DNA from: Nocardia sp. BSTN01
GTDB lineage: Bacteria > Actinomycetota > Actinomycetes > Mycobacteriales > Mycobacteriaceae
Length of the DNA stretch: 64,000 nt
Assembly: GCF_015354405.1 (NCBI RefSeq)
Contig: NZ_JADKYP010000001.1
Location: 124,001-188,000, forward strand
Direction: 5' to 3'
A program made the position numbers and the translations under genes. Below are positions 38,885 to 64,000 of this stretch, piece by piece. Below the pieces are notes generated by a model. The model saw only the letters and a list, made by a program, of their open reading frames with translations. It was not told where the DNA came from and did not search any database. Within the stretch, counting starts at the first letter, position 1; each line of letters opens with the position of its first letter.

Positions 38885-38903
38885 TAAGGTAAGCCTATGC
38901 AAA
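38885..38903. promoter_or_regulatory. IdeR/DmdR-type iron box (13 of 19)
   Basis: TAAGGTAAGCCTATGCAAA matches 13 of 19 bases of the consensus TTAGGTTAGGCTAACCTAA. It lies between the MTB12-family gene and the divergent hydroxylase gene. A possible -10 (TAATAC, 38910-38915) follows it. This is the weakest of the five boxes. Confidence 0.6.
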
Positions 38904-39022
38904 GGTAGGTAATACTCAGTCGACTTCGGGTGGATCCGCTCCTTCCGATATGTCGGATCTGCGCAGCTGAACGCCCCGGCGACCGGCTGGGCGGTGGCTG
39001 GAATCACAGAACGGGAGAACCA

Positions 39023-40312
39023 GTGAAGACGCTTCTCGTGGTCGGAGCCGGGCCGAAAGCGATGGCAGTGGCGGCGAAGGCTCGGGTGCTGCGGGACCTG
39101 GGGTTACCCGCTCCGCGCGTGGTCGTGGTGGAACCGCATGCGGTGGGCGGCAATTGGCTGCCCAGCGGCGGCTGGACCGACGGCCAGCACCGGCTCGGCA
39201 CCAGCCCCGAAAAGGATGTCGGCTTCCCGTATCACTCCACCTGGGCGCGCGGCCACAACCGCGCGATCGACCGGGCGATGATCGCCTACAGCTGGACGTC
39301 GTTCCTGGTCGAGAACGGCGCCTATGCCGAATGGATCGACCGGGGCCGGCCCAGTCCGCATCATCACGTCTGGGCCAACTATCTGCAGTGGGTCGCCCGC
39401 AAGGCCGAGGTCGAGATGGTGATGGGCGCGGTGCGCCGGATTCGCCCGGCCGCCGACGGCTGGCTGGTCGCGGTGGCCGACAGTTCCGGCGTGGAGACCG
39501 AAATCGACTGCGACGGACTGATGATCACCGGCCCGGGCGACAGTCGGCGCGCGCTGGCCGAACATCCGAAGGTGCTGAGCATCGCGGACTTCTGGGATCT
39601 CGCGGGTAAGCGCCGGCTGCCGGTCTCCTCGCGGGCGGCGGTGATCGGCGGCGGTGAGACCGCGGGGTCGGCGGTGGACGAATTGGTCCGCCACGACGTC
39701 CTCACCGTGTCGGTGATCTCGCCCGCGGCCACCATCTACACCCGCGGTGAAAGTTATTTCGAGAACGCGCTGTTCAGTGATCCGGCGAAGTGGCGGGCGC
39801 TGAGCCTGCAGGAGCGCCGCGACGTCATCCGCCGCACCGATCGTGGCGTGTTCTCGGTGCGGGTGCAGGAGAACGTGCTGGGGGACAATCGCGTTCATCA
39901 TCTCCAGGGACGCGTGGTGCGGGTGGCCGAGCGCGGCGAGGGAGTGGCGCTCACCTTGCGCAACGAATTGCGCCCCGATCAGATGCACGCCTTCGATCTG
40001 GTGGTCGACGCCACGGGAGGCCAGCCGCTGTGGTTCCTGGATCTGTTCGATGCCGATGCCTCGGATCTGGTGGAGCTCGCGGTGGGCGGGCCCGTCACTC
40101 ATGCCCGGCTGGAGGCGGCCATCGGCCACGATCTGGCGGTGTCCGGCCTCGATGCCAAGCTCTATCTGCCGAATCTCGCGGGGATGGCGCAGGGGCCCGG
40201 CTTCCCGAATCTCAGCTGCCTGGGCGAACTTTCGGATCGGGTGCTGGGTGAGGTGCCGGTGCGCCGGGCCGCCGCGGTGGCGCGGATCGGGGCCGGGCAG
40301 CGCCCGGAATGA
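39023..40312 (+). CDS. mbtG: L-lysine N6-monooxygenase (MbtG-like)
   Basis: A 429-residue flavin-dependent N-hydroxylase very like mycobacterial MbtG: GAGPKAMAVAAKA (FAD site), SGGWTDGQHRLGTSPEKDVG near residue 48, NADPH motif VIGGGETAGSAVDEL near 210, the FENALFSDP block and a late GMAQGPGFPNLSCLGELSDR. It hydroxylates the lysine side-chain amine, giving the hydroxamate precursor of a siderophore. The GTG at 39023 (with CGGGAG upstream) gives the same N-terminus as the family; the frame is open 31 codons earlier. It is followed, after its own iron box, by a formyltransferase gene, which points to formylation of the hydroxylated lysine. Ornithine as substrate is the alternative. Confidence 0.9.
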   Translation: MKTLLVVGAGPKAMAVAAKARVLRDLGLPAPRVVVVEPHAVGGNWLPSGGWTDGQHRLGTSPEKDVGFPYHSTWARGHNRAIDRAMIAYSWTSFLVENGAYAEWIDRGRPSPHHHVWANYLQWVARKAEVEMVMGAVRRIRPAADGWLVAVADSSGVETEIDCDGLMITGPGDSRRALAEHPKVLSIADFWDLAGKRRLPVSSRAAVIGGGETAGSAVDELVRHDVLTVSVISPAATIYTRGESYFENALFSDPAKWRALSLQERRDVIRRTDRGVFSVRVQENVLGDNRVHHLQGRVVRVAERGEGVALTLRNELRPDQMHAFDLVVDATGGQPLWFLDLFDADASDLVELAVGGPVTHARLEAAIGHDLAVSGLDAKLYLPNLAGMAQGPGFPNLSCLGELSDRVLGEVPVRRAAAVARIGAGQRPE

Positions 40313-40326
40313 TCACCCGGCAAACT

Positions 40327-40345
40327 GTAGGCTAGGCTACCCTTA
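40327..40345. promoter_or_regulatory. IdeR/DmdR-type iron box (15 of 19)
   Basis: GTAGGCTAGGCTACCCTTA matches 15 of 19 consensus bases. It is only 15 bases after the hydroxylase stop and 24 bases before the formyltransferase start, so the formyltransferase-NRPS operon probably has its own iron-repressed promoter. Confidence 0.8.
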
Positions 40346-40368
40346 GTTCGAGGGAAGAGGTTCGGTTC

Positions 40369-41306
40369 ATGCGTATCGTGTCGTTCGGTTATCAGACCTG
40401 GGGTCGTCAAACGCTGCAGGCGCTGATCGATTCGGAACATGAGGTGGTGCTCGCGGTCACCCACCCCGCGAGTGAACACGCCTACAAGGGCATCTGGTCC
40501 GATTCGGTCGAGGAACTGGCGCGCGAACACGGCATTCCGGTCCACCTGACCGAGCGCGCCGATGCGGAGACCATCGACCTGGTCAAGCGCGCCGAACCCG
40601 ACATCATCGTGGTCAACAGCTGGTACACCTGGATGCCGCCGGAGCTGTATCTGATGCCGCCGCACGGCACGCTGAATCTGCACGATTCGCTGCTGCCGAA
40701 GTTCACCGGGTTCTCGCCCGTGCTGTGGGCGCTGATCAGCGGTGAATCCGAATTCGGCCTGACCGTGCACCGGATGGACGAACAGCTCGACACCGGCGAC
40801 ATCCTCGTGCAGCGCTCGCTGCCGATCGGCCCGACCGCCACCGGAACCGAACTCGTCCTCGCCGGAATGGAATTGATTCCGGGCGCGCTTCAGGAGGCGC
40901 TGAGCGCGATCGAATCCGGCACCGCGGTCTGGCGGCCGCAGGACAAGGCCGAGCGCACCTATTTCCACAAGCGGTCCGAGCGCGACAGCCGCATCGACTG
41001 GCATTGGGACGCAGTGGATCTCGAACGTTTCGTGCGCGCGCTGTCCGAGCCGTATCCGCGGGCCTTCTCCTACTACCGCGGCGAGAAGGTGGAGATCACC
41101 GCCGCCACCCTGTCGCAGGCCCGCTACGGCGGAACTCCCGGCCGAGTGGTCGTGCAGGAGGGTGGTGGCGTGGTGATCTGCGGGCCGGACGCACATCGCG
41201 GCGGCAATCTCGGTCTGGTCGTGACCCGGGTGCGCACCGCCGACGGCGCCGAGCACGACGGCGCCGAATTCTTCGCTCGCGGTGGTTATCTCACCGACGC
41301 CCCGGC

Positions 41307-41310
<4 letters not shown>
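40369..41310 (+). CDS. Formyltransferase for hydroxylated siderophore amino acid
   Basis: A 313-residue 10-formyl-tetrahydrofolate-dependent formyltransferase (Fmt/PurN fold). The catalytic Asn-His-Asp set is visible: Asn and His in LNLHDSLLP (about residues 106 and 108) and Asp in LDTGDI (about 144). A C-terminal Fmt_C-like domain follows. It is too short and in the wrong context to be the housekeeping methionyl-tRNA enzyme. Next to the N6-hydroxylase it most likely makes N6-formyl-N6-hydroxylysine, as found in formobactin-, amamistatin- and brasilibactin-type siderophores. Its ATGA stop overlaps the next NRPS start, and GGGAAGAGG supports its own start. Confidence 0.87.
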
Positions 41311-44441
<3,131 letters not shown>

Positions 44442-44503
44442 GCTACGATTCCGAGAGGGCCGGGATCGCGAGTCGCCCGGAGCGAAGTACAAGGAGCTGT
44501 GCA

Positions 44504-45505
44504 ATGAACCCAGGTCGAACATCCGCGCGCCGCGGTATGCGCGCACGCGGCGCGGTGCTGCGAACCACGTTGCTGGCGCTGATCCTGGGTCTGGTGACGG
44601 CCGTGGCCGCGTGCGGATCCGGTTCGGACGACGCCGATTCCGGTGCGGCCGTGACGATCGAGCACAGCATGGGCACCACCACCGTCGACGGCACGCCCAA
44701 GCGCGTGGTGACCCTCGGCCCGGCCTGGCTGGACGCGGCCGTCTCGCTCGGGGTCACCCCGGTCGGCTATCTGGTGCCCGGCGCCGGGGCCGGGATGACC
44801 GTGCCGTGGCTGCCGCCGACGCTGCCGCAACAGTCCAAGGCCCTGAACGTGGGCGGCGATGTCGTCGAGCAGATCGCGGCGCTCGAGCCCGATCTCATCG
44901 TGGCGCCGGGTTACATGATGGACAAGGCCATGTACGACAAGCTGTCCAAACTCGCCCCGACCATCGGGCCGCTGTCCTCGGCGCAGATCGACCCGTGGGA
45001 GGACCAGGTTCAGGCCCTCGGCAAGGTGCTGCACAAGCAGGACCAGGCCGGCAAGGTGGTCGCCGATGTGCACGGCAGGATCGACGCGGTCGCCGCGAAA
45101 CATCCCGGCCTGAAGGGCAAGACCTTCCTCACCTGCATGCTCACCACGCCCACCCAGTTGATGGTGCTGGCGGATCCGAAAGACGGTTCCGCGCAGGTGT
45201 TCACGCGGCTCGGGATGACGATGCCGGCGAAACTGGTCGCCGAGGCCCCCTCGGGCGGACGGCTGGCGCTCTCGCCGGAACGGCTCGGCGATCTGACCTC
45301 CGATCTGCTGGTGTGCGGCGCGGCGCCGGGCCTGCAGGAGAAGTTCACCCAGCTGCCGGGCTACGCGGATCTGCCGTCGGTGCGCCAGGGCGGCATCTCG
45401 TTCGTCGACATGATCACGATCAACGCCATCAACCAGCCGACCGCGCTGTCGGTGCCGTATCTGCTCGACAAGCTCGAACCGACCTTCGCGACCGTCGGCA
45501 AGTAA
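44504..45505 (+). CDS. Siderophore-binding lipoprotein (FecB/FepB-type substrate-binding protein)
   Basis: A 333-residue lipoprotein. The signal peptide ends in a lipobox (TAVAAC, about residue 36), so it is anchored to the outside of the cytoplasmic membrane. The rest is a class III periplasmic-binding-protein fold: RVVTLGPAWLDAAVSLGVTP, LEPDLIVAPGYM, and a C-terminal FVDMITINAINQPTALSVPYL. Such proteins bind ferri-siderophores and deliver them to an ABC importer. AAGGAG lies seven bases before the ATG. It sits inside the NRPS gene group, behind its own iron box. No FecCD-type permease is nearby; the IrtAB-like pair downstream is the only candidate partner here. Confidence 0.88.
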   Translation: MNPGRTSARRGMRARGAVLRTTLLALILGLVTAVAACGSGSDDADSGAAVTIEHSMGTTTVDGTPKRVVTLGPAWLDAAVSLGVTPVGYLVPGAGAGMTVPWLPPTLPQQSKALNVGGDVVEQIAALEPDLIVAPGYMMDKAMYDKLSKLAPTIGPLSSAQIDPWEDQVQALGKVLHKQDQAGKVVADVHGRIDAVAAKHPGLKGKTFLTCMLTTPTQLMVLADPKDGSAQVFTRLGMTMPAKLVAEAPSGGRLALSPERLGDLTSDLLVCGAAPGLQEKFTQLPGYADLPSVRQGGISFVDMITINAINQPTALSVPYLLDKLEPTFATVGK

Positions 45506-45518
45506 GGACTGATTACCC

Positions 45519-47213
45519 ATGTCTGATGCGCTCGTGCCGAATACGACCGTGCCGGCCACCTCTGCTCCGAAAACCGCTGCGGCCGCGACGGAGTCGCGGG
45601 CGGGCGGGCGGGGCATCCCGTTGTCCCCGGCCCAGCAGGCCGCCCTGCTGCCGGAACGCCTGCGCGGGATCGCGGCGACGAATCTCTTTCTCGCCCTGGA
45701 GATCACCGGTGACCTCGGTCCGGCCGATCTGGACCGGGCCGCGGTCGCCGCGGTGAGCCGGCACGACGTTCTGCGCACGCTCTATCCGGACGATCGCCGG
45801 ATTCCGTACCAGCGTGTCGTCGACGCGCCCGACACGGTGGTCGAGACGGTCGAGACCGCCTCCTCGGACCTCGACGCCGCGCTGCGCGCCGACGCCGCGC
45901 ACCGCATCGATCCGGTGCGCGAGTTGCCGATCCGGATCAGACTGCACCGCACGCCCGATCGCGACGTCCTGTCCCTCACCGCTCATCCGGTGGCCGCCGA
46001 CGATCGCAGTCTCGAACTGCTGATCGCGGAACTGGCCGAGGGGACGGTCGCCGAGCCCGTGACGCAGTACCGGGGCTACGCGATGGCACAGATGAAGTCA
46101 CTGGTCGGTGACGCGGCCGCCGATCCCGACCTCGGGTACTGGCTGGGTCGGCTGGCCGATCTGCCCGAGCGGGCGACCGTGGCGGTGACCGCTGATTCCG
46201 GCGCGGCACCGGGTCCGGCCGCCGCGACCCGCACCCTGCGGATTCCGGCGGCTGCCTTCGGTGACCACGACGTCGAACTGTCCGTGGTGGCCGCACTGGC
46301 CGCGGTGCTGGGCGCGGCGGGTCTCGGTGATGATGTGCCGATCGGCATCGCCGACGCGGGACGTACCGGCGCACAGCAGGATTCGGCGCTCGGCGCTTAC
46401 GCGAACCATCTGGTGCTGCGCGTCGACACCGGCGCGTCCGCCACCCCGCGAGCGCTGCTGGCGCAGGTCGCGGAGCTCGCGGTGCCCGCGCGCGCCCATG
46501 CCGCGGCCCGGATCGAGCGGATCACGCATCAGCTGCGCGGTGCCGCCGCCGTCGCCGCGGGTGCGCCCTTCCAGGCCCTCGTCACCACCCGAACCGAGGT
46601 GACCGGTGCGAATGCGCGCGAGATCGCCCGGCGAGTGGCGCGGCCGCACGGCGTGGATGTCGTCGCCGATGTCGTCACCGGAGGCGAGGAGGTGGCGGTG
46701 ACCCTCGAATTCCCGGCGGTACTGGCAGGAAGCGCTGAATTCGACACGCTCACGAGCGGAATCGAGCGATGGCTGCTGAACTCCGCTGCCTCGGATAATC
46801 CGCTGCGCGATGTGGAGATTCCGACGGTGTTCGAACGGAACACGTCGTACTCCGGTGGCACCGGTCTCGGCGGAGAGCCCAGCACGGAGGCCGAACGGCT
46901 GATCGCCGCCACCATTCGCGAGGTGCTCGAACTGGACGCGGACGACGAGGTCGGCCGCGCCGACACCTTCTTCTCGCTGGGCGGGGACAGCATCGCCGCA
47001 CTGCGCATGGTCACCCTGCTCGGTGAGCGAGGCTATGCGCTCGATGTGCAGAAGGTGTTCGAATTCCCGGCTGTGCACGAAATGGCCGCACAGCTGACCG
47101 AGGCCGAGGCGGTCCCGGCCGCCGAACAGCCCGCCCCCGTCGCGCCGATGAGCGCTTCCGGTCTGGATCCGGCCGCGCTGGCCGCACTCGGCAAGAAGTT
47201 CGCCGCACGGTGA
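45519..47213 (+). CDS. Unusual condensation-domain/carrier didomain protein (no adenylation domain)
   Basis: A 564-residue protein with a condensation-like domain (about 30-430; start motif LSPAQQAALLP, then AVSRHDVLRTLY) joined directly to a carrier domain (about 455-525, S491 in FFSLGGDSIAALRMV). No adenylation domain is present, so the carrier must be charged by another protein. The HHxxxDG motif reads HPVAADD, with Pro at the catalytic second His (residue 157). Similarity in the second half of the condensation domain (GAYANHLVLRVD...APFQALVTTRTEV) is also weak. It could hold an intermediate for tailoring or act as a docking partner. Its stop overlaps the next NRPS start (GTGA). The carrier's GGDSI form usually precedes an E or C domain acting in trans. 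Confidence 0.82.
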   Translation: MSDALVPNTTVPATSAPKTAAAATESRAGGRGIPLSPAQQAALLPERLRGIAATNLFLALEITGDLGPADLDRAAVAAVSRHDVLRTLYPDDRRIPYQRVVDAPDTVVETVETASSDLDAALRADAAHRIDPVRELPIRIRLHRTPDRDVLSLTAHPVAADDRSLELLIAELAEGTVAEPVTQYRGYAMAQMKSLVGDAAADPDLGYWLGRLADLPERATVAVTADSGAAPGPAAATRTLRIPAAAFGDHDVELSVVAALAAVLGAAGLGDDVPIGIADAGRTGAQQDSALGAYANHLVLRVDTGASATPRALLAQVAELAVPARAHAAARIERITHQLRGAAAVAAGAPFQALVTTRTEVTGANAREIARRVARPHGVDVVADVVTGGEEVAVTLEFPAVLAGSAEFDTLTSGIERWLLNSAASDNPLRDVEIPTVFERNTSYSGGTGLGGEPSTEAERLIAATIREVLELDADDEVGRADTFFSLGGDSIAALRMVTLLGERGYALDVQKVFEFPAVHEMAAQLTEAEAVPAAEQPAPVAPMSASGLDPAALAALGKKFAAR

Positions 47214-50200
47214 GCGAGGTGGAGATTCTCGACGTCGTCGCGCTGTCGCCACTGCAGCGCGGGCTGTATTCGGTCAGTTCGATGGCGCAGGGCATCGACC
47301 CCTATCTGGTCACCTTCGCGGTGCGCATCGATGATCTGGCCGATCCGGCGGCACTGCGCGCGGCCTTCGACGGCGTCCTGCGGCGCTACCCGCATCTGGG
47401 TGCGGCGGTACTGGCCGAGGATGTGCCGCATCCGGTGCTGGTCATCACCTCGGCGGGCCGAATCGGCTGGCGCGAGCTCGATCTGCGCTCGGCCCCCGAC
47501 CCCGAGGCGGCGGCGCGGGATCTCTACTGGCAGGAAGCGCGCCGGCGGCTCGACCTGGACCGCGGGCCGCTGTTCCGGGTGGTCGCTGCGCAGGTCGGCG
47601 AGCGCGAGTACGAAGTTGTGTGCACCGCACACCATATCGTCGTCGACGGCTGGTCGATTCCGCTGCTGTTCTCCGATCTGATCGCCCTGCATCGCGGGGA
47701 GGGCGCGGCGCTGCCCCCGGCTCCGCCGTTGCGGGAACACGCGGCCTGGCTGGCGAGCCGCGACACCGAGGCCTCGGCGCGGGCATGGGCCGCGGCACTG
47801 GAGGGTCTGGCGCCGATGCCGATGCTCGGGCCGCCGGCACCGGCGGATCTCGACCTGCCCGTCGTGGGCGAGGCGCGCGTGGACGCGGCGGGCACCGACC
47901 TGCTCCTCACCTGGGCGCGGGCCAACGGCCTCACACTGAACACCGTCCTCCAAATGGCATGGGCGCGTATTCTTTCCGGCCTGACCGGCCGCGACGACGT
48001 GGTCTTCGGCCAGACCACCTCGGGCCGGGACGCCTCGCTGCCGAATGCGGAACGCCTGGTCGGCGCGCTGGTCACCACCATTCCGGTGCGGGTGCGGATG
48101 GACGACCGCGCGCCCGCGCAGGTCGGCGCCGAACTGCAGCGTTCGGTGGCGCAGTTGCGGGCGCACGAATATCTGGGCATCGCGGAGATCACCCGCCACG
48201 CCGGGGCCGGGCAGTTGTTCGACAGTCTGCTCGTCTTCGAGAACTCACCGGTCGGCGCGGTCGCACCGCGCATGCCGATGGGTGGCGGCGCCACCATGAC
48301 CGCCCGCCGCGTCGATTCCCCGAGCCACTATCCGATCGCCGTCGTACCCGTACTGGAACACGGCGAGCTGATCTGCCGCGTCGAAACCCGACCGGACCTG
48401 CTCACCACCTTCGACCCGGACCGGATGGCGCGCCGGTTGCTCGCCGTCGCCACCCGGATCGTGACGGCGCGGCAGTGCAGTGCGGTCGATGTACTGCTCG
48501 ACGACGAGCCCGCCGCGCTGACGGCCGACTACGCCGGTGGCGCAGGGGTTTCCGATTCCACGTCGATTGTCGGCTCGTCGGCCGAGGTATCGGGTTCCCC
48601 GGCATCCACGCAGGCGGTGCCGGGTACTCCGGCGAGTTCCATCGTCCGGTCCGCGCCGGCGACACAGGCCGTGCCGGATAGCCGGGCGAGTTCTGCTGCC
48701 GGGTCCGCGCAGGCTTCGCCGAGCAGCGCGCCGAGTTCTGCCGCACCCGCCACGGTTCCGGAGGCGTTACTCGACGCTGCCGATGCGGCGGCCGATCGGA
48801 TCGCGGTCGTCGATGCGGCGGGTGAGCAGACTTTCGCCGAATTCGGTTCCGCGGTACGCACATTGGCCGCCGAGCTGGTTGCGGCGGGGATCGGTTCCGG
48901 TGACTCGGTGGCGGTCATGCTGCCCCGCGACCGCCGAGTCCTGCACGTTCCCTTCGCCGTCGGTCTCGCCGGCGCCACTTGTGTGCACGTCGATCCGGCC
49001 ACCCCGGCCGACCGCGTGGCGTATCTGCTGAGCACCAGCGGGGCGCGCATCGTTCTCGCCGACGCGGACCGCGCCGAGACGCTGGCCGAGGTCCGCGCGC
49101 AAGCGGTGGAATGCCGCCACGGGATCACGGACAGCGACGGCCGCCTTCTGTTTCCAGGCTCCGATTCGGTTTCGGCGGGCGGCCGTGGTGTGCCGCGAGT
49201 GACGGTTTCGGCCGAAACGGCGACTCCGGGCGTTGCGACGACGGAGGAGGCCACGTCGCACGGGTCGCCACTGCCGGCATCGGACGGTGCCGCAGCGCAC
49301 GGACGGTCGGACTCCAGTGCGGAACGGAACCGCGAGTCCGTCAGCGCGTCAGACACTGTGCCGCAACGGTATTCGGACGCCCCGTTCTATGTGGTGTTCA
49401 CCTCCGGCACGACCGGCAGGCCCAAAGGGGTGGCGGTATCGCATCGCGCGCTGCTCAACCACTGGGGCAATCACGAGCGGCGGATCTTCGCGCCGATCGC
49501 CGCCGCCACCGGGCGCACACTGCGCATCGGGCACGGCTGGTCCACCGGATTCGATGCGGCGTGGCAGCCCACGGTCGCCCTGCTGAGCGGCCACACCGTG
49601 GTGATGTTGGGGGACGAGGTACGCACCGACGCCGAGCGCATCGTCGCGGCGATCGACGACTTCGGTATCGATATCTTCGACACCTCACCGTCCATGCTGA
49701 ACCGGTTGATCGCCGCCGGGATGTTCCGGACCGATTCCGAGACCGGCGCCGAACACTGCCCGTTGGCCGTGCTCGCACTCGGTGGTGAGGCGATCAGCCC
49801 CGACACCTGGCGGCGCCTGCAGGGATTGGCGACCACCCGGGTCATCAACTTCTACGGCCCGACCGAGGCGACCGTCGAGGCGCTGATGGCCGATGTGCAC
49901 GATCACGCCGCGCCGACCATCGGCCGCCCGTTCGACGCGATGACCGCCGAGGTGCTCGATCACCGGTTGCGGCCGGTGCCGCCAGGGGGGCAGGGCGAGC
50001 TCTACCTTTCCGGACCGCAACTCGCGCTCGGTTATCTGGGGCGGCCCGCCACCACCGCGGCCGCCTTCGTAGCCGGCGAGGCGGGTGAAAGGCGTTATCG
50101 CACCGGCGATCTGGTGCGCCGCTCCGACGACGGGACCGTCGTCTACGAGGGGCGTGTCGACCGGCAGGTGAAGATCAACGGATACCGCGTCGAACCCGAC

Positions 50201-55707: not shown

Positions 55708-56040
55708 ATGTGGCAGATCGAGTTGTCGGACGAAGTGGCCCAGTGGCTCGTTTCTCTGAATGAATCGGACTATGCCGCTGCGAGTCGTAAACTCGATCTG
55801 CTCGCTGCCGAGGGCCCGATGCTGCGTATGCCACATGCGAAGTATCTCGGGCAGAAGTTGTACGAACTGCGGTTTGCGTTGGAGAGCGTCAACCGTCGCA
55901 TCACCTACACATTCGATGAGGGTAGGAAGGTGATCACTCTGACCACCTTCCGGAAACAGCGGCAGAATGAGGCTCGCGAAGTGCTGCGCGCACGCCGTGC
56001 GCTGAAGCGTTATCGCGGGAGCGAAGAGGGTGAACGATGA
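55708..56040 (+). CDS. HigB/RelE-type (Gp49-like) toxin
   Basis: A 110-residue protein of the RelE/HigB superfamily: WLVSLNESDYAAASRKLDLL, then MPHAKYLGQKLYELRF and RITYTFDEGRKVITLTTFRK, ending in a basic helix. These toxins cleave mRNA on the ribosome. It comes first in the pair, as in HigBA modules, and overlaps the antitoxin gene by four bases. TATAGT (55696-55701) lies six bases before the ATG and no ribosome binding site is seen, so a leaderless message is likely. Confidence 0.87.
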   Translation: MWQIELSDEVAQWLVSLNESDYAAASRKLDLLAAEGPMLRMPHAKYLGQKLYELRFALESVNRRITYTFDEGRKVITLTTFRKQRQNEAREVLRARRALKRYRGSEEGER

Positions 56041-56342
56041 ACACTGTGAACTATCAAAAGGTTCATGCCCAGCGGCTGGCGCGGATGACCCCTGAGCAGC
56101 GTGCCGAATACGACGCTGCCTACGAACACGCCGGTTTGGCACTGCGACTCGCGGAGCTGTTCTATGACGCCCGCACGGCGGCCGGTCTGACGCAGACGGA
56201 GCTGGCGCGTCGCATGGGTACTACTCAGCCGACGATCGCCCGGATCGAGGGCGGCGGCCGGATCCCGACACTGGACATGCTCGAGCGGTTGGCCACTGCG
56301 GTCGGCATGCAGCTCGATATCTCGCTCACCGCCGCGGCCTGA
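56037..56342 (+). CDS. HigA-type antitoxin (XRE helix-turn-helix)
   Basis: A 101-residue protein with an XRE/Cro helix-turn-helix (LTQTELARRMGTTQPTIARI, about residues 56-80) and a charged N-terminal helix. It would bind the toxin and repress the pair's own promoter. The pair lies within the siderophore locus, between the transporter and the SIP reductase gene, and has no evident link to iron. Confidence 0.88.
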   Translation: MNTVNYQKVHAQRLARMTPEQRAEYDAAYEHAGLALRLAELFYDARTAAGLTQTELARRMGTTQPTIARIEGGGRIPTLDMLERLATAVGMQLDISLTAAA

Positions 56343-56414: not shown

Positions 56415-57113
56415 TCACCGCCAGTAGCCGCGGGTGGCGATATTGTGTTTCGGCAGTTTGGCTTTCAGCGATTTGGTGATCGCGCGTGTGGTGGCGGCAT
56501 CGCAGGCGGCCCAGCCGAACGCGTCGGGGGAGCAGGTCACCGAGTCGGCCGCCTGCCGCAGCAACTGGCCGTAGTTCACTCGCTGCACCCACGTCACCTC
56601 GGTCTTGGGTCCGGTCCGCACCGGCAGCGACTGTTCGGACTCCTCCTGCCATTCCAGCCAGACCCGGGCCGGCGTCTCACCGATGGCGTCCAGCAGCGAG
56701 TTGACGGCGGGCAGGGAGGCGCTGTCGCCGAAGATCAGAAACTCGGACGGGACCGGTTCGGGCACAGCGAATTTCGAGCCCATAACCGTGGCGTCGATGA
56801 CATCGCCGACCGCGGCTTTCTCGGCCCAGCGCGAGGCAGGTCCACCGTGCAGGGCGAATTCGATATCGAAGGTGTCGGCTTCAGGATTCGGGTCGACCAG
56901 GGTGTAGCCCCGCTGGACGAGATTGCCGCTGTCCTCGGCGAACCAGATCCGTACCCATTGGGTGGGGTGGACCGGGTGCTCGGCCAGCAGGCCGCCGCCC
57001 GTGAAGCCGATGCGCAAGTATCTGTCGCTGATCTGTCGCGTCGAGGTCACCGTGAACCGGTAGTCGTCGGCGCCGAGCGCCTTCAGCACGATGCCATTGA
57101 ACCCTTTGCCCAT
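56415..57113 (-). CDS. Siderophore-interacting protein (SIP-type ferric reductase)
   Basis: A 232-residue flavin reductase of the SIP/ViuB family. The FAD-binding RxYT-type motif is QRGYTLVDP (about residue 68), followed by FALHGGPASRWAEKAAVGD and GDSASLPAVNSLL; the C-terminal AATTRAITKSLK...ATRGYWR is characteristic. It reduces iron in imported siderophores so that it is released in the cytoplasm. Divergent from the MbtB-like NRPS. TACTCT (minus strand 57125-57120) lies six bases before the ATG and there is no ribosome binding site, so the mRNA is probably leaderless. The iron box at 57132-57150 overlaps its promoter. Confidence 0.9.
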   Translation of the reverse strand: MGKGFNGIVLKALGADDYRFTVTSTRQISDRYLRIGFTGGGLLAEHPVHPTQWVRIWFAEDSGNLVQRGYTLVDPNPEADTFDIEFALHGGPASRWAEKAAVGDVIDATVMGSKFAVPEPVPSEFLIFGDSASLPAVNSLLDAIGETPARVWLEWQEESEQSLPVRTGPKTEVTWVQRVNYGQLLRQAADSVTCSPDAFGWAACDAATTRAITKSLKAKLPKHNIATRGYWR

Positions 57114-57131
57114 GCGGCTAGAGTAGCGGAG

Positions 57132-57150
57132 TTAGGTTAGCCAAACCACA
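57132..57150. promoter_or_regulatory. IdeR/DmdR-type iron box, SIP side (15 of 19)
   Basis: TTAGGTTAGCCAAACCACA matches 15 of 19 consensus bases, with the left half perfect. It lies upstream of the SIP gene start, across the likely -35 to -10 region of that promoter. Confidence 0.8.
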
Positions 57151-57188
57151 TCCCTACGGCAGTCGGGGGTGTGTGGGCTACTATGCTT

Positions 57189-57207
57189 TGAGGTTAGGCA
57201 AGCCTAG
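57189..57207. promoter_or_regulatory. IdeR/DmdR-type iron box, NRPS side (15 of 19)
   Basis: TGAGGTTAGGCAAGCCTAG matches 15 of 19 consensus bases. It sits 52 bases before the MbtB-like NRPS start, next to a possible -10 (TATGCT, 57183-57188), so repressor binding would block transcription. It is the second box in the same divergent gap. Confidence 0.8.
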
Positions 57208-57259
57208 CCTTTGAAGTAGGTGGTGAGGCCCGATTTCCGGCCGGTGAGGAGTTTGTCTG

Positions 57260-60200
57260 ATGCTCGGCAAGGCTGACGTTCGTGACATCGTGGCGGCGGA
57301 GCTGGGGATCCGACCCGAATCGATCGGATACGACGACGATCTGGTCGGCCTGGGCATGCATTCGATGAAGCTCATGCGTCTCGCCGGTCGCTGGCGCAAA
57401 CAGGGCCACGAGGTCCGCAGTTCCGAACTCGCGCTGGCGCCCACGATCTCCGCATGGGCCGAATTGCTCGGCGCCACTCCCGAACCCGCGCCCGCCGCCG
57501 CCACCGCCGAAGCCGGTGCCGTGTTCGCCGACGGCGAGGAATTCCCGCTCGCCACCATGCAGCACGCCTACTGGGTGGGCCGCCGCCAGGACCAGCGGCT
57601 CGGCGGTGTCGCCGCCCACCTCTACGTCGAATTCGACGGCCGCGGCCTGGACGCCGAGCGCATGGGCCGTGCGGTCGAACGCCTGGTCCGGCGCCATCCC
57701 CAGCTACGCGTGCAGTTCACCGACGCCGGCACGCAGCGCGTGCTGCCCGAGCCGCTGCTCCCGGTGTTCTCGGTCGAGGATCTGCGCGCGGCCGCCGACC
57801 CGGACACCGAACTGGAACGGCTGCGCCAGGACAAGAGTCATCAGCGGATGGATGTCGAGGCCGGTCAGGTCATCGACATCACCCTCACCCTGCTGCCCGG
57901 CGGCGCCCACCGCGTGCACGTCGACGTGGACATGCTCGCCGGAGATGCGTTGAGCTACCGGCGAATTCTCGACGATCTGGCCGCGCTCTACGACAGCGAC
58001 GCCGATCCGGCCGATACCGTCGGCTACACCTTCCGCGAATATCTCGACGCCAGAGCGCGCCACGCGCCGGACAATTCGGCCGCCCAGGCCTGGTGGGAGC
58101 AGCGACTCGCCGACTTGCCCGATATCCCGTCGTTGCCGGTACTGGCCGAGGACGAGCGCGCCGACCCGAGCCGCAGCATCCGGCTGCACCACTGGTTCGA
58201 ACCCGAGGCCAAAGCCGGATTCGACAAGCTCGCCCACAGCCACGGTGTCACCCCCGCGGTGGCGCTGGCCACGGTGTTCGCCGAGGCCATCGCACGCTGG
58301 TCCGCGCGGCAGCGCTTCCTGCTGAACGTCCCGCTGTTCGACCGGGAGCCGCTGCACGACGATATCGACCGCGTGGTCGGCGACTTCACCAATTCGGTCC
58401 TGGTCGACGTCGACGCCCACGCGCCGGAATCGATGGTCGCCCGCGCCAAGCGCCTGCAACGCGAATTGCACACCTGCGCCGTGCATTCCGGGTACGAGGG
58501 CCTGGATGTGCTGCGCGATCTCGGCCGCCTGCGCGGCGGTCCGGTGACGCCGTCGGTGGTCTTCACGTCCGGCCTGGACCTGGGCGAGCTCTTCTCCGAG
58601 CGGGTCACCACCCTGTTCGGCGAGCCGGTGTGGATCCTGTCGCAGGGCCCGCAGGTCGATCTCGACGCGCAGGTCGCCGAACTGGGCGGCGGTCTGCTGG
58701 TCAATTGGGACGTGCGCCGCGACGCCATGCCCGAGGGCGTGGTCACGGCGATGTTCGCCGAATTCCGCCGCCTGCTGCTGGCCCTCGCCGAGCCGGATGC
58801 GGACTGGAACGCACCGCTGTCGATCGAGCTGCCGGCGCAGCAGCGTGCGGTACGCGAGCGGGTGAACGACACCTTCACCGACTGGCAGGCCCGCACCCTG
58901 CACGGTGACTTCTTCGACCGCGCCCGCCGCAAGCCGGAGCCCGAGGCCCTGCGCTGGCGCGGCGGTGCCTGCGACTACGGCGATCTGGCCGATCAGGCGC
59001 TCGCGGTCGCCGCCGCGCTCACCGATGCCGGCGTGCGGCCGGGAGATACCGTCGCGGTGGTGATTCCCAAGGGCCACCGGCAGATTCCCGCCGTCCTCGG
59101 TGTGCTGGCCGCGGGAGCGGCCTACGTGCCGATCGGCACCGGTCAGCCGCCGGCGCGGCGCGACCGCATTCTGGCGCGCGCCGGTGCCCGGGTCGCGCTC
59201 ACCGATGCGGCGCTCGAGCTGCCGGCCGACGTCACCGCCATCGACTTGACCACCGCGCTGGCCGGCCGCCGCCTCGAGCGCGCCTACGCCAGCGATCCGG
59301 ACGCCGTCGCCTACGTGCTGTTCACGTCCGGATCCACCGGTGAGCCCAAGGGCGTGGAGGTCAGCCATCGCGCCGCCGCCAACACCATCGACGCCCTCGG
59401 CGCCTATTTCGGCCTGGACGCGAGCGTTCGGCTGCTGGGCCTGTCGTCGCTGGAATTCGATCTGTCGGTTTTCGACATCTTCGCTCCGCTCGCGCTGGGC
59501 GGTGCGCTGGTGTGCGTGGACGCCGAGATCGAGCGGGACGCCCAGGCGTGGGCCCGGCTGATCGCCGAAGACGAAGTGAGCGTGCTCAATTGCGCGCCCG
59601 GCTTGATCGGGATGCTGCTGGACTCCGCCGACGCGGCGGCCTTGCGCACACTGCGGGTGGTCGTCACCGGCGGTGACCGGGTCGACGCCGAACTCGCGCA
59701 TCGCCTGCGCGCCGCGGTGCCCGACCTGCGTTTCGCCGGTCTCGGCGGTGCCACCGAGGCCGCGATCCATTCGACCGTCTGCGAAGTGACCGACGACTTC
59801 CCGGCCGACCGCGCCACCGTGCCCTACGGCACGCCGCTGGCGAATGTGGCGATGCGGGTGGTGAACGAGCGCGGCGAGGACTGCCCGGACTGGGTCGTCG
59901 GCGAATTGTGGATCGGCGGAACGAGTGTGGCCGACGGCTACCGCGGCGACCCGGAACGCACCGCCCAGCGCTTCGTCGAATACGGCGGCCTGCGCTGGTA
60001 CCGCACCGGCGACCTGGCCCGGTATCTGCCCGACGGCACCGTCGACTTCCTCGGTCGTGCCGACCATCAGGTCAAGATTCGCGGCTACCGCGTGGAACTC
60101 GGTGAGGTCGAGACCGCGCTGACCACACTGCCGTCCGTTCAGCAGGCCGTCGCACTGGTGACAGGTTCCGGCCGGTTGGCCGCCGCGGTGCGGGCCGGCA

Positions 60201-60709
60201 GTGTCACCGCCGACGAGTTGCGGGTAGCGCTGCGGGATCTGCTTCCCGCCCACATGATCCCGGACCTGATCGAGATCGTGACCGAGATCCCGCTGACTCC
60301 CAACGGGAAACTGGACCGGGCCGCGATCCGGCGGCTGGTCGAGGCCGGCGCCCCCGATGCCGGCGCGGCCGCGGTGGCGCCCGCGAACGAGATCGAGGCG
60401 GCGCTGGCCTATATCGCGGCGCAGATCCTCGGTGTCGAGACCGTCGGTGTGGACACCGATTTCTTCGAGATCGGCGGCAACTCGATCCTGGCCACCACGT
60501 TCACCGCCAAGGTGCGCGGACTGCTCGCGGTAGAGAAATTCGGTGTCACCGCGGTCTTCGGCGGACGGACCGTGCGCCGCATCGCCGCACAACTGCAGGC
60601 CGACGAGACCACCCCCGGCCGCTTGGCGCAGGTGTCGCGGATCCTGCTGGAACTGGCCGAAGTGCCCGTGCCCCAGCCGGATTCGGCACTCGCCCCGGCG
60701 GGGAACTGA
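57260..60709 (+). CDS. Siderophore NRPS, ArCP-Cy-A-PCP (MbtB-like)
   Basis: An 1149-residue synthetase. It opens with an aryl-carrier domain (S35 in LGMHSMKLMRLA), then a heterocyclization domain (about 90-520) with the DxxxxD motif DMLAGD (D224, D229), an adenylation domain (about 540-1010; LFTSGSTGEPKG, A10 PNGKLDRAAIRR) and a carrier (S1075 in IGGNSILAT). This is the layout of MbtB: an aryl acid, probably salicylate, is joined to Ser/Thr (or Cys) and cyclised to an oxazoline (or thiazoline). The pocket by eye (D-L-F-N-V-G-L-I-H) resembles that of Cy-linked Cys/Ser/Thr modules and does not settle which. No terminal thioesterase is present, although M. tuberculosis MbtB has one. The aryl-acid synthase and ligase are not in the window. 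GAGGAG precedes the ATG, and an iron box lies upstream. Confidence 0.9.
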   Translation: MLGKADVRDIVAAELGIRPESIGYDDDLVGLGMHSMKLMRLAGRWRKQGHEVRSSELALAPTISAWAELLGATPEPAPAAATAEAGAVFADGEEFPLATMQHAYWVGRRQDQRLGGVAAHLYVEFDGRGLDAERMGRAVERLVRRHPQLRVQFTDAGTQRVLPEPLLPVFSVEDLRAAADPDTELERLRQDKSHQRMDVEAGQVIDITLTLLPGGAHRVHVDVDMLAGDALSYRRILDDLAALYDSDADPADTVGYTFREYLDARARHAPDNSAAQAWWEQRLADLPDIPSLPVLAEDERADPSRSIRLHHWFEPEAKAGFDKLAHSHGVTPAVALATVFAEAIARWSARQRFLLNVPLFDREPLHDDIDRVVGDFTNSVLVDVDAHAPESMVARAKRLQRELHTCAVHSGYEGLDVLRDLGRLRGGPVTPSVVFTSGLDLGELFSERVTTLFGEPVWILSQGPQVDLDAQVAELGGGLLVNWDVRRDAMPEGVVTAMFAEFRRLLLALAEPDADWNAPLSIELPAQQRAVRERVNDTFTDWQARTLHGDFFDRARRKPEPEALRWRGGACDYGDLADQALAVAAALTDAGVRPGDTVAVVIPKGHRQIPAVLGVLAAGAAYVPIGTGQPPARRDRILARAGARVALTDAALELPADVTAIDLTTALAGRRLERAYASDPDAVAYVLFTSGSTGEPKGVEVSHRAAANTIDALGAYFGLDASVRLLGLSSLEFDLSVFDIFAPLALGGALVCVDAEIERDAQAWARLIAEDEVSVLNCAPGLIGMLLDSADAAALRTLRVVVTGGDRVDAELAHRLRAAVPDLRFAGLGGATEAAIHSTVCEVTDDFPADRATVPYGTPLANVAMRVVNERGEDCPDWVVGELWIGGTSVADGYRGDPERTAQRFVEYGGLRWYRTGDLARYLPDGTVDFLGRADHQVKIRGYRVELGEVETALTTLPSVQQAVALVTGSGRLAAAVRAGSVTADELRVALRDLLPAHMIPDLIEIVTEIPLTPNGKLDRAAIRRLVEAGAPDAGAAAVAPANEIEAALAYIAAQILGVETVGVDTDFFEIGGNSILATTFTAKVRGLLAVEKFGVTAVFGGRTVRRIAAQLQADETTPGRLAQVSRILLELAEVPVPQPDSALAPAGN

Positions 60710-60759
60710 CCGCAGCACCGGGCACCCGAGTTTTCGTTGTAGACAGATTGGTTCGTCAG

Positions 60760-63700
60760 ATGCGTTCGCTGGAAGACCTGCAGGTAGCGATGGCGGCTCG
60801 GCTCGCCGAGGAAGGTTTGGCCACCGCCGCGGCCGTGCCGGCACGCCGGAATCCGCAGCGGGCGCCGTTGTCGTTCGGGCAGCGTTACGTGTGGGCGCAT
60901 CAGCAGATTTCGCCCGGCAGCTCCGCCTACAACCTGTGCCTGGCGCTGACCTTCGAGAGCGCGGTGGACGCCGAGCCGATCGATGTGGGGGCACTGCGTG
61001 CGGCCTTCGCCGCGCTCGTCGAGCGGCACGAGGTGCTGCGCACCACCTATCACACCGATGAGGACGGTGAGCCCTATCAGCGGATCCACGCCGACCTGCC
61101 GCCCCGGCTGGTGGAGGAGGACCTGTCCGGTCTCGCCGCGGAGCAGGCCCGGCGGCGGCTGCGCGAGCTGACCGAGGCCGCGGCCCGCGAAAGCTTCGAT
61201 CTGACCGCGGAATCCTCGTTGCGCGTGACCTTCGTCCGGATGTCCGCCACCGAACTGGTCGCGGTGGTGGTGATTCAGCACATCGCGTGGGACGGGATGA
61301 CGCTGCCCGCCCTCTCCCGGGATGTGGAGACCTTCTATCGGCAGGCACTGACCGGCCCGGTCACGGTGGAGCCGCTGCGGTTGCAGGTCGCCGATTTCGC
61401 CGAATGGGAGGCCGACCGGTTCGCCGCCGACGACCATGCCGAGGATATCCGTTTCTGGCAGAGCCGCTTCGACGGGGAACTTCCGGAGCTGCAATTGCCC
61501 TACGATCGCCGCCCCGTGGCGGCCACCGAGCGCGGTGCCCGCCGTGATCGCCCGCTGAGCGCGGCCGCCGACACCGCGCTGCGCCGCCTCACCGCCGAGC
61601 TGCGCACCACCCCGTTCTCGGTATTCCTCGCCGCCTACTACGTCGCGCTGCGCGAGATGACCGGGCGCGGCGACATGGTCATCGGCACCACCGTGGCCAA
61701 CCGCGAAGAGTCCGGGATGGAGCTGCTGATCGGCAATCTCAGCAATATGCTCCCGCTACACATCGCCGGCCGTGACGATCAGCGCTTCGCCGACCTGGTC
61801 GAACAGGTGCGCGGCGTGATCACCGACGCGTTCGGGCACAAGCATTTCCCGCAGGAAGGCATCGTCCGCGCGGTGAACGCCGCGACCGGCAACGTCGGCT
61901 CGAACCTGTTCGACACGATGGTGCTGTTCCTGCACCAGAAGATCGACGGTCCCCAGCTGCCGGGCGTCACCACCAGCTGGGAGCTGATGGACAACGGCGC
62001 CGCCCTGCTGCCGCTGGTGGTGGAGACATTCATGCACGGTGATCGGACCGACGTCCAGATCACCTATCGCACCGACCTTTTCGACGCCGTTACGATCGAT
62101 CGCCTGCACGAGTACATCGACCTGGTGCTCGCCGCCGCGGCCGCCGACCGGCGGGTATCGGAGCTGGCCACGCTGTCGGCGACCGATCGCGCGGCGCTGG
62201 CGCAGTGGTCGCACGGCGCCGCGGTACCGATCGAGGCGGAGACCGCCGACGCGATGATCCGCGCCTCCGCGCGCACCTACCCGGACCGCACGGCCGTGGT
62301 GTTCGGCGATATCGAACTGAGCTACCGCGAATTCGATACCCGGGTGAACCGGCTCGCGCGACTGCTGCTGGAAGACGGGGTGCGGCCCGGCGATCGCGTC
62401 GGTGTCTACGCCGAACGCAGTGAACGGCTGCCGATCGCTTTCGCTGCGGTGCTGCGCGTCGGCGCGGTGTATTTCCCGATCGACCCCAGCTACCCGATCG
62501 ACCGCATCGAGTACATGCTCGGCGATGCCGAACCGGCGTTGCTGCTGACATCAGCGGACAAGGCGCTGAGCGTCGAAACCCGCGTTACCACAATCGATCT
62601 CACCGACCAGCAGGTGAACGAACGCCTGTCCGCACTCGACGGCTCGGAGCTGTCGCCGACCGCACTGCCGCGACCCCTGCATCCGCTCGATCCCGCCTAT
62701 CTGCTCTACACCTCCGGCACCACCGGCCGCCCCAAAGGTGTCGTGATCCACCACCGCGGCATCGCCAACCATGTGCAGTGGATGCGCGACTATCTCGGCT
62801 TCGGCGAGGAGCGCATCCTGCAGAAGGCGCCGATCGGCTTCGACGTCTCGGTCTTCGAACTGGTGAACGCGCTGTGCACCGGATCGGCGACGGTGCTGCC
62901 GCCGCCGCAGTGGTGGCAGGCCGATGTGGAGGCGCTCGCCGGGATCATCCACCGGCATCGCATCACACAGATCTCGTTGGTGCCCAGTGTGGTTCGCGCC
63001 TTCATCGACGCCGGACCGGACCCGGCTCGGCTGCAGTCCATGCGTTACGTCTACCTGGGTGGCGAGGCGGTACCCCCGGCGCTGGTCGAGGAATCGAGCC
63101 GGTTCTTCGGCGGCACGGTCCTCGGCCTCTACGGCCCCACCGAGGGCTCGATGGACCTCATGCACGAGGACTTCGCCGGACGAACGAACACCGAAGCTGC
63201 CGCCGGCACTGCGCTCGAACCGGCGCTCATCGGCCTGCCCGAATGGAATTCGTCGGTCTACGTGCTGGACGAGCGGTTGCGGCAGGTCCCGCCCGGCGTG
63301 ATCGGTGAGCTCTACCTCGGTGGCGTGCAGCTCGCGCAGGGCTACCACCGGCGCCCCGATCTGACCGCCGGAGCCTTCGTGGCGTGCCCGTTCGCCGGTG
63401 AGCCCGGTGCCCGGATGTATCGCACCGGCGATATCGTGCGCTGGAATTCCCACGGCCGCATGGAATATCTGGGGCGGGTCGACGATCAGGTCAAGGTGCG
63501 CGGGCATCGCATCGAACTCGGTGAGATCGGCACCGTGCTGCGCCGCGTACCCGGAATCGCCTCCGCCGTGGCGATCACCGTGCCGCAGGGTGCGCAGAGC
63601 CACGACCTGGCACTGGTGGCCTACTATGTGCCCGAAGCGAATTCGGAATTCGCCACCGGCGGCGACGCCGAGAACACCGAGCGCATCAAAGCCGCACTGG

Positions 63701-64000
63701 CACAACGCCTGCCGGAATACATGATCCCCACGGCACTGGTGAAACTGGCGGCACTGCCGCTGACCGCCAACGGCAAACTCGACCGCCGGGCACTGCCGCA
63801 GCCGGATCTCGGCGGCAGCACCGGCCACGGCCGGGAACTGCGTGCGGGCGCAGAAGCCGCGGTCGCGGAGGTGGTGCGCGCGGTGCTGCACCTCGGCGAT
63901 ACCACCGCGTTGGCCGCCGACGACGATTTCCTGGCCCTCGGCGGCGATTCCATCAGCGCGATCCGGATGGCGTCGGCGTTGAAGAAGTACGGATTGCTGA
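60760..64000 (+). CDS. Siderophore NRPS, C-A-PCP-(continues), 3' truncated by window
   Basis: The first 1080 residues of a synthetase that runs off the right edge. Short N-terminal helix (about 1-30), condensation domain (about 35-480) with QHIAWDG (the catalytic His is kept, the first His is Gln), adenylation domain (about 490-990; LYTSGTTGRPKG, YGPTEGS, YRTGDIVRW, A10 LTANGKLDRRALP) and a carrier with S1064 in LGGDSISAIRM. The pocket by eye is D-V-F-S-Y-G-L-M-D; I cannot assign it. It begins 50 bases after the MbtB-like gene in the same direction, so it probably extends the aryl-capped chain. No strong ribosome binding site is seen before the ATG 60760; the end and further domains are unknown. 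Confidence 0.9.
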   Translation, partial: MRSLEDLQVAMAARLAEEGLATAAAVPARRNPQRAPLSFGQRYVWAHQQISPGSSAYNLCLALTFESAVDAEPIDVGALRAAFAALVERHEVLRTTYHTDEDGEPYQRIHADLPPRLVEEDLSGLAAEQARRRLRELTEAAARESFDLTAESSLRVTFVRMSATELVAVVVIQHIAWDGMTLPALSRDVETFYRQALTGPVTVEPLRLQVADFAEWEADRFAADDHAEDIRFWQSRFDGELPELQLPYDRRPVAATERGARRDRPLSAAADTALRRLTAELRTTPFSVFLAAYYVALREMTGRGDMVIGTTVANREESGMELLIGNLSNMLPLHIAGRDDQRFADLVEQVRGVITDAFGHKHFPQEGIVRAVNAATGNVGSNLFDTMVLFLHQKIDGPQLPGVTTSWELMDNGAALLPLVVETFMHGDRTDVQITYRTDLFDAVTIDRLHEYIDLVLAAAAADRRVSELATLSATDRAALAQWSHGAAVPIEAETADAMIRASARTYPDRTAVVFGDIELSYREFDTRVNRLARLLLEDGVRPGDRVGVYAERSERLPIAFAAVLRVGAVYFPIDPSYPIDRIEYMLGDAEPALLLTSADKALSVETRVTTIDLTDQQVNERLSALDGSELSPTALPRPLHPLDPAYLLYTSGTTGRPKGVVIHHRGIANHVQWMRDYLGFGEERILQKAPIGFDVSVFELVNALCTGSATVLPPPQWWQADVEALAGIIHRHRITQISLVPSVVRAFIDAGPDPARLQSMRYVYLGGEAVPPALVEESSRFFGGTVLGLYGPTEGSMDLMHEDFAGRTNTEAAAGTALEPALIGLPEWNSSVYVLDERLRQVPPGVIGELYLGGVQLAQGYHRRPDLTAGAFVACPFAGEPGARMYRTGDIVRWNSHGRMEYLGRVDDQVKVRGHRIELGEIGTVLRRVPGIASAVAITVPQGAQSHDLALVAYYVPEANSEFATGGDAENTERIKAALAQRLPEYMIPTALVKLAALPLTANGKLDRRALPQPDLGGSTGHGRELRAGAEAAVAEVVRAVLHLGDTTALAADDDFLALGGDSISAIRMASALKKYGLL

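What the first reader, a model, noticed from the sequence alone, without database searches (positions are those of the whole stretch)
38885..64000. Mycobactin-like locus with a formyltransferase: probable formyl-hydroxamate aryl-capped siderophore
The sequence shows an MbtG-like lysine N6-hydroxylase, a formyltransferase with its Asn-His-Asp set, an MbtB-like ArCP-Cy-A-PCP protein, an MbtF-like C-A-PCP-E protein and IrtAB/SIP uptake genes, all with iron boxes. Known N6-formyl-N6-hydroxylysine siderophores from Nocardia relatives (formobactin, amamistatin, brasilibactin) also carry lipid or polyketide parts, but no polyketide or acyltransferase gene is visible here. The set of modules, including a C-PCP protein, does not map simply onto one of these compounds. 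A new member of the family is possible (inference).
Basis: partly seen in the sequence, partly recalled or inferred. Interest (0 to 1): 0.75.

Follow-up and report, generated by a model that had tools for sequence, protein, structure and literature searches.

The report
Nocardia nova-type nocobactin siderophore genes
This is a known kind of Nocardia iron-scavenger gene cluster (nocobactin family, formyl type); the one unexpected part is that two of its peptide-assembly proteins lack the residue normally needed to form bonds and yet are kept across many species.

Summary
The genes described are present, and a salicyl-capped, N6-formyl-N6-hydroxylysine siderophore is well supported. The "missing" polyketide genes lie just beyond the window: thioesterase, KS and an NbtC equivalog (1402.8 bits, cut-off 1150). 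Salicylate synthase and ligase are on another contig. Gene content matches nocobactin subfamily II (or IX) of Männle et al. 2020 (PMC7413640; section 9 and part of 10 read); its tested subfamily II member, N. elegans NBRC 108235, has the same gene order over the stretch held and is reported to make nocardimicin G/H-like ions. So: an ordinary new member of a known family.

One point I did not find in print: the two halves of a split NbtD (C-A-T and C-T) lack the catalytic His of HHxxxDG in 44 of 44 and 45 of 45 distinct sequences; 27 of 27 one-piece NbtD examined keep it in both C domains. Carrier motifs stay intact, and all 44 genomes with C-T (of 149) also have the C-A-T-E-C protein. This suggests that C-A-T-E-C took over the first-lysine step, and argues against the published guess that C-T replaces NbtD's terminal C-T.

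The parts
38885..38903 (.). IdeR-type iron box before nbtG
   Evidence: pattern scan, 3 mismatches, 0 in 100 shuffles
38930..40312 (+). NbtG-like L-lysine N6-monooxygenase (alternative GTG start at 39023 fits the N-terminus of the solved protein)
   Evidence: PDB 4d7e L-Lys monooxygenase, E 3.5e-224; only match in the genome
40327..40345 (.). iron box before terH
40369..41310 (+). TerH-like formyltransferase; N103, H105, D141; stop overlaps the ATG of the next gene (41307)
   Evidence: PF00551/PF02911, PDB alignments
41307..44441 (+). C*-A-T protein, corresponding to the first three domains of NbtD; A code DALHPGHVSK close to NbtD's; condensation domain lacks the catalytic His
41739..41759 (+). 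degenerate condensation motif HTIAWDD (canonical HHxxxDG)
   Evidence: second His absent in 44 of 44 distinct orthologs
44428..44446 (.). iron box before the binding-protein gene (overlaps the end of the C*-A-T gene)
44504..45505 (+). Fe-siderophore binding lipoprotein (PF01497)
45519..47213 (+). C*-T didomain protein, corresponding to the last two domains of NbtD; catalytic His absent
45984..46004 (+). degenerate condensation motif HPVAADD
   Evidence: second His absent in 45 of 45 distinct orthologs
47210..51946 (+). NbtE-like C-A-T-E (terminal D-lysine / caprolactam module), code DAQDAGFVEK
51969..53870 (+). IrtA-like ABC transporter half
   Evidence: Irt name inferred from type and position
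53867..55597 (+). IrtB-like ABC transporter half
   Evidence: name inferred
56415..57113 (-). siderophore-interacting protein
   Evidence: PF04954, PF08021
57132..57150 (.). iron box between SIP and nbtF
57194..57212 (.). iron box between SIP and nbtF
57260..60709 (+). NbtF-like ArCP-Cy-A-T (salicyl-Ser/Thr oxazoline), code DLFNVGLIHK; DMLAGDALS fits the Cy motif DxxxxDxxS (motif recalled)
60748..64000 (+). C-A-T-E-C protein (continues to window-equivalent 66933); motifs QHIAWDG, HHLVVDG (E), HHLLTDG; code DVFSYGLMDK

Best explanation
This is the nocobactin-type siderophore cluster of a Nocardia nova-complex strain, formyl type. Shown by sequence: the gene set, iron boxes, and the absence of the catalytic His in the condensation domains of the C-A-T and C-T proteins. 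Inferred: NbtS makes salicylate, NbtT loads it on NbtF, NbtF makes the hydroxyphenyl-oxazoline; the C-A-T-E-C protein adds the first lysine unit, epimerises it and passes it to the beta-hydroxy acid made by KS + NbtC (ester bond); NbtE adds and epimerises the second lysine, which closes as the caprolactam; NbtG hydroxylates and TerH formylates lysine N6. The product should be of the nocardimicin G/H kind. The C*-A-T and C*-T pair (a split NbtD) cannot form bonds in the usual way; its A and T domains stay conserved, so it most likely still loads lysine and/or carries an intermediate for the C-A-T-E-C protein.
For: NbtC equivalog 1402.8 bits vs cut-off 1150 (MbtD model 740.5 vs 1150); NbtG to PDB 4d7e; salicylate synthase TIGR03494 513.8 bits vs 325.15 beside a ligase whose best PDB hit is salicylate-AMP ligase 5wm2, with an iron box. 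In the own genome NbtG has one match and NbtC one full-length match, its other 15 matches being partial and at most 36% identical. Same gene order in N. aobensis, kruczakiae, mikamii, cerradoensis, elegans and africana over the stretches held. Published: this architecture with nocardimicin G/H-like MS in N. elegans (PMC7413640). Absent catalytic His: 44/44 C-A-T and 45/45 C-T distinct sequences vs 27/27 NbtD with it in both domains; carrier motif intact in all of these; A code close to NbtD's. Tree of 98 domains: C-A-T C sister to NbtD C1 (0.833), C-T C sister to NbtD C2 (0.957), second C of C-A-T-E-C with the C of NbtE (0.992). All 44 C-T genomes of 149 also have C-A-T-E-C; 45 have the latter.
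Against: No product is known for this strain; the literature link is MS-based and called a postulate by its authors. Why two A domains (C*-A-T and C-A-T-E-C) persist for one first-lysine position is unexplained; the A code of C-A-T-E-C (DVFSYGLMDK) could not be assigned here, nor its specificity in the paper. The 44 cases reflect shared ancestry (both C classes monophyletic), so one or few events. The rate evidence is weak: dN/dS of the dead C domains (means 0.27 and 0.28, 7 comparisons each) is below that of the motif-intact E domain of NbtE (0.31) in the same set, and overlaps intact NbtD C domains (means 0.20 and 0.18). In one of 19 readable rows (G098) the E motif of C-A-T-E-C lacks its second His. 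Amamistatin A is reported with D- and L-lysine (PMC7413640 section 9), so stereochemistry does not follow one simple rule.
Confidence: 0.8

Rival explanations
1. C*-A-T and C*-T still do the NbtD job (first lysine, ester bond) with a non-canonical active site, and C-A-T-E-C has another role; this is close to the published guess that C-T substitutes for NbtD's terminal C-T.
For: A code close to NbtD's; A and T under strong purifying selection (C-A-T: A 0.13, T 0.11; C-T: T 0.12); C-T present in 44 of the 45 genomes with C-A-T-E-C; published suggestion (PMC7413640 section 9).
Against: The second His of HHxxxDG is Thr (25), Ala (18) or Ser (1) in C-A-T and Pro (44) or Ser (1) in C-T; several residues tolerated at the C-A-T site do not look like a new catalytic residue. 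C-A-T-E-C is found in all 44 C-T genomes, and its two C domains keep the catalytic His in every readable row (21 and 19).
Confidence: 0.2
2. C*-A-T and C*-T are fading relics of NbtD with no function.
For: Catalytic residue absent; their C domains evolve faster than the other C domains of the cluster (0.27-0.28 vs 0.11-0.19).
Against: Carrier motif kept in 44/44 and 45/45, A3 motif in 43/44; omega far below 1; C-T present in 44 of 45 genomes with C-A-T-E-C, the exception (G123) being an 88% complete assembly of 720 contigs.
Confidence: 0.12
3. The cluster makes a new compound with a fourth amino acid, because it has four A domains.
For: Four A domains with four different codes.
Against: The paper explains the ions of strains with the extra NRPS genes by the usual core with no extra residue (PMC7413640 section 10).
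Confidence: 0.08

Closest known systems
Nocobactin-like BGC subfamily II (Nocardia elegans NBRC 108235; Männle et al. 2020)
   Same: TerH formyltransferase, discrete C-T protein, C-A-T-E-C protein, NbtF in cluster I, transporters in the operon, no C-methyltransferase in NbtC; same gene order from nbtG to the start of nbtF in L009, all that was held
   Different: Nothing found that differs in kind; the ten proteins compared are 83-97% identical. Subfamily IX has the same listed features and was not compared by sequence
Nocobactin NA cluster (nbt, N. farcinica; description read in PMC7413640 section 9; original paper not held)
   Same: NbtC equivalog, KS, TE, NbtE-, NbtF-, NbtG-like proteins, NbtS/NbtT in a second locus
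   Different: NbtD split into C*-A-T and C*-T, both lacking the catalytic His; extra C-A-T-E-C; formyl- instead of acetyltransferase
Subfamilies VI (brasilibactin-like) and VIII
   Same: Discrete C-T protein and C-A-T-E-C, TerH (paper)
   Different: NbtC there carries a C-methyltransferase (paper); none here
Mycobactin (mbt)
   Same: Overall assembly logic (recalled) with MbtG-, MbtC-, MbtD-, MbtB-like parts
   Different: Formyltransferase instead of a long-chain acyl group on lysine N6; MbtD model below cut-off

Membership tests
Nocobactin-type siderophore cluster | NbtC-type AT-KR-ACP | tested here: met
   NF037941 1402.8 bits, cut-off 1150
Nocobactin-type siderophore cluster | stand-alone KS and thioesterase next to NbtC | tested here: met
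   PF00109/PF02801 and PF00975, adjacent ORFs
Nocobactin-type siderophore cluster | NbtF (ArCP-Cy-A-T) | tested here: met
   Two PP-binding stretches, one Condensation-superfamily domain, one AMP-binding; DMLAGDALS fits the Cy motif (motif recalled)
Nocobactin-type siderophore cluster | NbtG lysine N6-monooxygenase | tested here: met
   PDB 4d7e, E 3.5e-224; activity not tested
Nocobactin-type siderophore cluster | one-piece NbtD (C-A-T-C-T) with catalytic His in its C domains | tested here: not met
   Two genes, HTIAWDD and HPVAADD; published subfamilies II, VI, VIII and IX also have the discrete C-T protein, so this excludes only the nocobactin NA subtype
Nocobactin-type siderophore cluster | salicylate synthase and salicyl-AMP ligase (cluster II) | tested here: met
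   L024: TIGR03494 513.8 bits; ligase best PDB hit 5wm2
Nocobactin-type siderophore cluster | product with aryl-oxazoline, acylated N-hydroxylysine, hydroxy fatty acid, caprolactam | not testable with these tools
   needs culture and MS
Nocobactin subfamily II (or IX) | TerH formyltransferase, C-T protein, C-A-T-E-C protein, NbtF in cluster I, transporters in operon | tested here: met
   against PMC7413640 section 9
Nocobactin subfamily II (or IX) | no C-methyltransferase domain in NbtC | tested here: met
   Pfam shows AT, KR (adh_short) and PP-binding only
Nocobactin subfamily II (or IX) | no SagB-type dehydrogenase beside the cluster | tested here: inconclusive
   None among the proteins profiled between 38930 and L006 18722; flanking ORFs were not scanned
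Mycobactin (mbt) | MbtD model over cut-off | tested here: not met
   740.5 bits, cut-off 1150
Mycobactin (mbt) | long-chain acyltransferase MbtK | not tested
   not searched in the genome

The most novel reading that the evidence does not exclude
In this branch of the nocobactin family the former NbtD has become a condensation-dead, conserved loading pair: C*-A-T charges lysine on its carrier, where NbtG and TerH (encoded directly upstream, the terH stop overlapping its start) modify N6, the dead C domains serving as docking surfaces in the manner of the X domains of glycopeptide synthetases (recalled comparison), and C*-T carries the hydroxy-acyl or a transfer intermediate, while a later-recruited C-A-T-E-C protein does all bond formation of that step and flips the lysine to D.
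Probability: 0.25. Interest if true: 0.6.

Novelty: new member of a known kind. Interest (0 to 1): 0.33.

Why it matters
As a cluster it adds one strain to a known siderophore family. What could matter is the domain bookkeeping: published work guessed that the C-T protein substitutes for the terminal C-T of NbtD; the sequences say that neither C domain of the split NbtD can catalyse in the usual way. That gives a clear test of how an assembly line hands a step from an old module to a new one. That extra E-containing enzymes may set the lysine stereochemistry is already suggested in the paper (section 9); the loss in the old module would give that idea a mechanism.

Tried and rejected
Considered and dropped: a mycobactin sensu stricto (MbtD model below cut-off); a cluster without polyketide part (PKS genes next to it); a DHB- rather than salicylate-capped product (salicylate synthase found; the other three chorismate-binding proteins were not classified). 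Asterobactin as product was considered from memory only: five papers listed, passages of one seen, not pursued. A substrate for the code DVFSYGLMDK could not be assigned. That N. nova JCM 6044 (nocardimicin producer by a reference title seen) and NBRC 15556 (L011) are one strain is recalled and was not confirmed. The test for relaxed selection came out weak: dead C domains 0.27 and 0.28, but the motif-intact E domain of NbtE 0.31, and intact NbtD C1 and C2 0.20 and 0.18 with overlapping ranges and non-independent pairs. The structure prediction of the C-T protein was not finished at any poll; nothing from it is used.

On novelty: papers searched with 'nocobactin' + 'condensation domain' (2 listed, not opened), 'brasilibactin' + 'biosynthe' + 'epimerization' (1 listed, PMC7413640), and inactive condensation domains in general (15 of 26 listed, none opened); in the main text of PMC7413640 'inactive' and 'HHxxxDG' do not occur. 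Subscription papers and supplements were not searched, so 'not in print' is claimed only within these searches.

Rows: six C-A-T and six C-T sequences identical to others were removed before the counts. Earlier counts of 31 and 31 include duplicates and are superseded. G042 gave C-T but no C-A-T (contig end). The 27 NbtD are those fetched, not every NbtD-like match, whose list is also cut at the end.

Mended on re-reading: G146 keeps both His of its E motif, so only G098 is named for a degenerate E; the NbtE E-domain rate was added; identity limit for C-T is 47%.
Full report
What is there. The window is contig C1:124001-188000 of a 7.79 Mb genome; its genus is Nocardia, judged by named loci up to 92% identical in the C-T protein. 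Its last 25 kb hold, in order, nbtG, terH, a C-A-T NRPS, an Fe-siderophore binding protein, a C-T NRPS, a C-A-T-E NRPS, an IrtAB-like pair, a SIP (minus strand), nbtF and the start of a C-A-T-E-C NRPS. Reading on along the contig gives the end of the C-A-T-E-C gene (window-equivalent 66933), then a thioesterase, a KS, NbtC (AT-KR-ACP) and a DrrABC-type ABC exporter with an iron box in front.

Second locus. The salicylate branch is elsewhere, as described for N. farcinica (PMC7413640 section 9): contig C181 carries a salicylate synthase (TIGR03494, 513.8 bits, cut-off 325.15) and, facing it, a ligase whose best solved relative is salicylate-AMP ligase 5wm2, with an iron box before the synthase.

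Regulation. Five IdeR-box-like sites are found in the whole window, all in this locus, and none in 100 shuffles. The consensus is recalled; all five have three mismatches.

Known family. Männle et al. 2020 (PMC7413640; section 9 and part 1 of section 10 read; passages) describe nocobactin clusters in 92 of 101 Nocardia genomes. Subfamilies II, VI, VIII and IX have a discrete C-T protein and an extra C-A-T-E-C protein, the formyltransferase TerH, NbtF in cluster I and in-operon transporters; VI and VIII also have a methyltransferase in NbtC. The present cluster has the former and not the latter, so it fits II or IX. Sixteen named Nocardia loci with the C-T protein were fetched; aobensis, kruczakiae, mikamii and cerradoensis (91-92% in that protein) and elegans, nova and africana (83-84%) have the same order of genes over the stretch held. 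N. elegans NBRC 108235 is the paper's tested member of subfamily II, with ions matching nocardimicins G and H. The compound class is therefore known; this strain's product is predicted, not shown.

The unexpected part. The C-A-T and C-T proteins correspond to the two parts of NbtD: in a tree of 98 domains their C domains are sisters of NbtD C1 (support 0.833) and C2 (0.957), and the A code DALHPGHVSK is close to or the same as that of NbtD (DA[AML]HPGHV[CS]K in 7 of 7 NbtD read). But the second His of HHxxxDG is absent: in C-A-T it is Thr (25), Ala (18) or Ser (1) of 44 distinct sequences; in C-T Pro (44) or Ser (1) of 45; in 27 of 27 one-piece NbtD proteins examined it is kept in both C domains. 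The carrier-serine motif is intact in all 44 and 45; A3 is TSGSTG in 43 of 44 and GKL of A10 is kept in 44 of 44. By contrast the C-A-T-E-C protein has QHIAWDG, HHLVVDG (E) and HHLLTDG; its two C domains keep the catalytic His in all readable rows (21 and 19), its E domain keeps both His in 18 of 19, and its A code, DVFSYGLMDK, is the same in 19 of 19 readable rows.

Co-occurrence. In 149 genomes of the genus, the own one included, the C-T protein (47% identity or more, three genomes in two pieces) is in 44; the C-A-T-E-C protein (60% or more over its first C domain, frame above 2000 aa) is in 45, among them all 44; the exception, G123, is an 88% complete assembly of 720 contigs. Four more genomes have that first C domain alone in short frames. 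In a family sample of 201 genomes (15 of the own genus) two genomes of other genera had a C-T match above 50% (G223, and a fragment in the 66% complete G162).

Rates. Within the N. nova complex and N. veterana dN/dS (Nei-Gojobori, own script; 7 comparisons, 4 for C-A-T-E-C) averaged 0.27 and 0.28 for the dead C domains, 0.13 and 0.11 for A and T of C-A-T, 0.12 for T of C-T; for comparison 0.11 for the C, 0.19 for the A and 0.31 for the E of NbtE, and 0.19, 0.12, 0.16 and 0.12 for C1, A, E and C2 of C-A-T-E-C. Intact NbtD C domains elsewhere averaged 0.20 and 0.18. So A and T are clearly constrained, while relaxation of the dead C domains is mild and not unique to them.

Reading. The simplest account is that C-A-T-E-C took over condensation of the first lysine and the ester step, adding an E domain (D-lysine), while the old NbtD kept only loading and carrying. 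The paper reports brasilibactin A with D- and D-lysine and nocobactin NA with L- and D-lysine, which fits, but amamistatin A with D- and L-lysine; it already suggests that the extra E-containing enzymes could explain stereoisomers (section 9). The new observation does not fit its suggestion that C-T substitutes for NbtD's terminal C-T. Amamistatin work (PMC8978914; section 4 part 2 and passages read) found products with lysine N6 unmodified or formylated without the hydroxyl, so the assembly line can accept incompletely modified lysine; that leaves room for modification on the carrier, but shows nothing about it here.

Limits. All of this is sequence evidence. The loss is probably one or few events inherited by many species. 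G111 has both an intact NbtD and the split version.

Noticed in passing
It looks like an aryl-oxazoline plus N-hydroxy-diamine siderophore, perhaps nocardichelin-like (composition recalled); papers only listed.
   Followed up: partly
55708-56342: A Gp49/RelE-type protein and an HTH protein overlapping by 4 bases: a toxin-antitoxin-like pair between irtB and the SIP gene.
   Followed up: no
L074 and L110 (G111): One genome holds both an intact one-piece NbtD gene and the split NbtD/C-A-T-E-C cluster.
   Followed up: no
L052/L053 (G098), also L072/L073 (G146): C-A-T-E-C whose E motif lacks the second His in G098 (HRLVADAASW; G146 keeps it), and in both genomes an NbtC frame enlarged to about 1500 aa.
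   Followed up: no
L006 18831-20000 and L007 298-1614: Two similar, probably secreted proteins in tandem right of the exporter genes; lipase-like by eye, not profiled.
   Followed up: no
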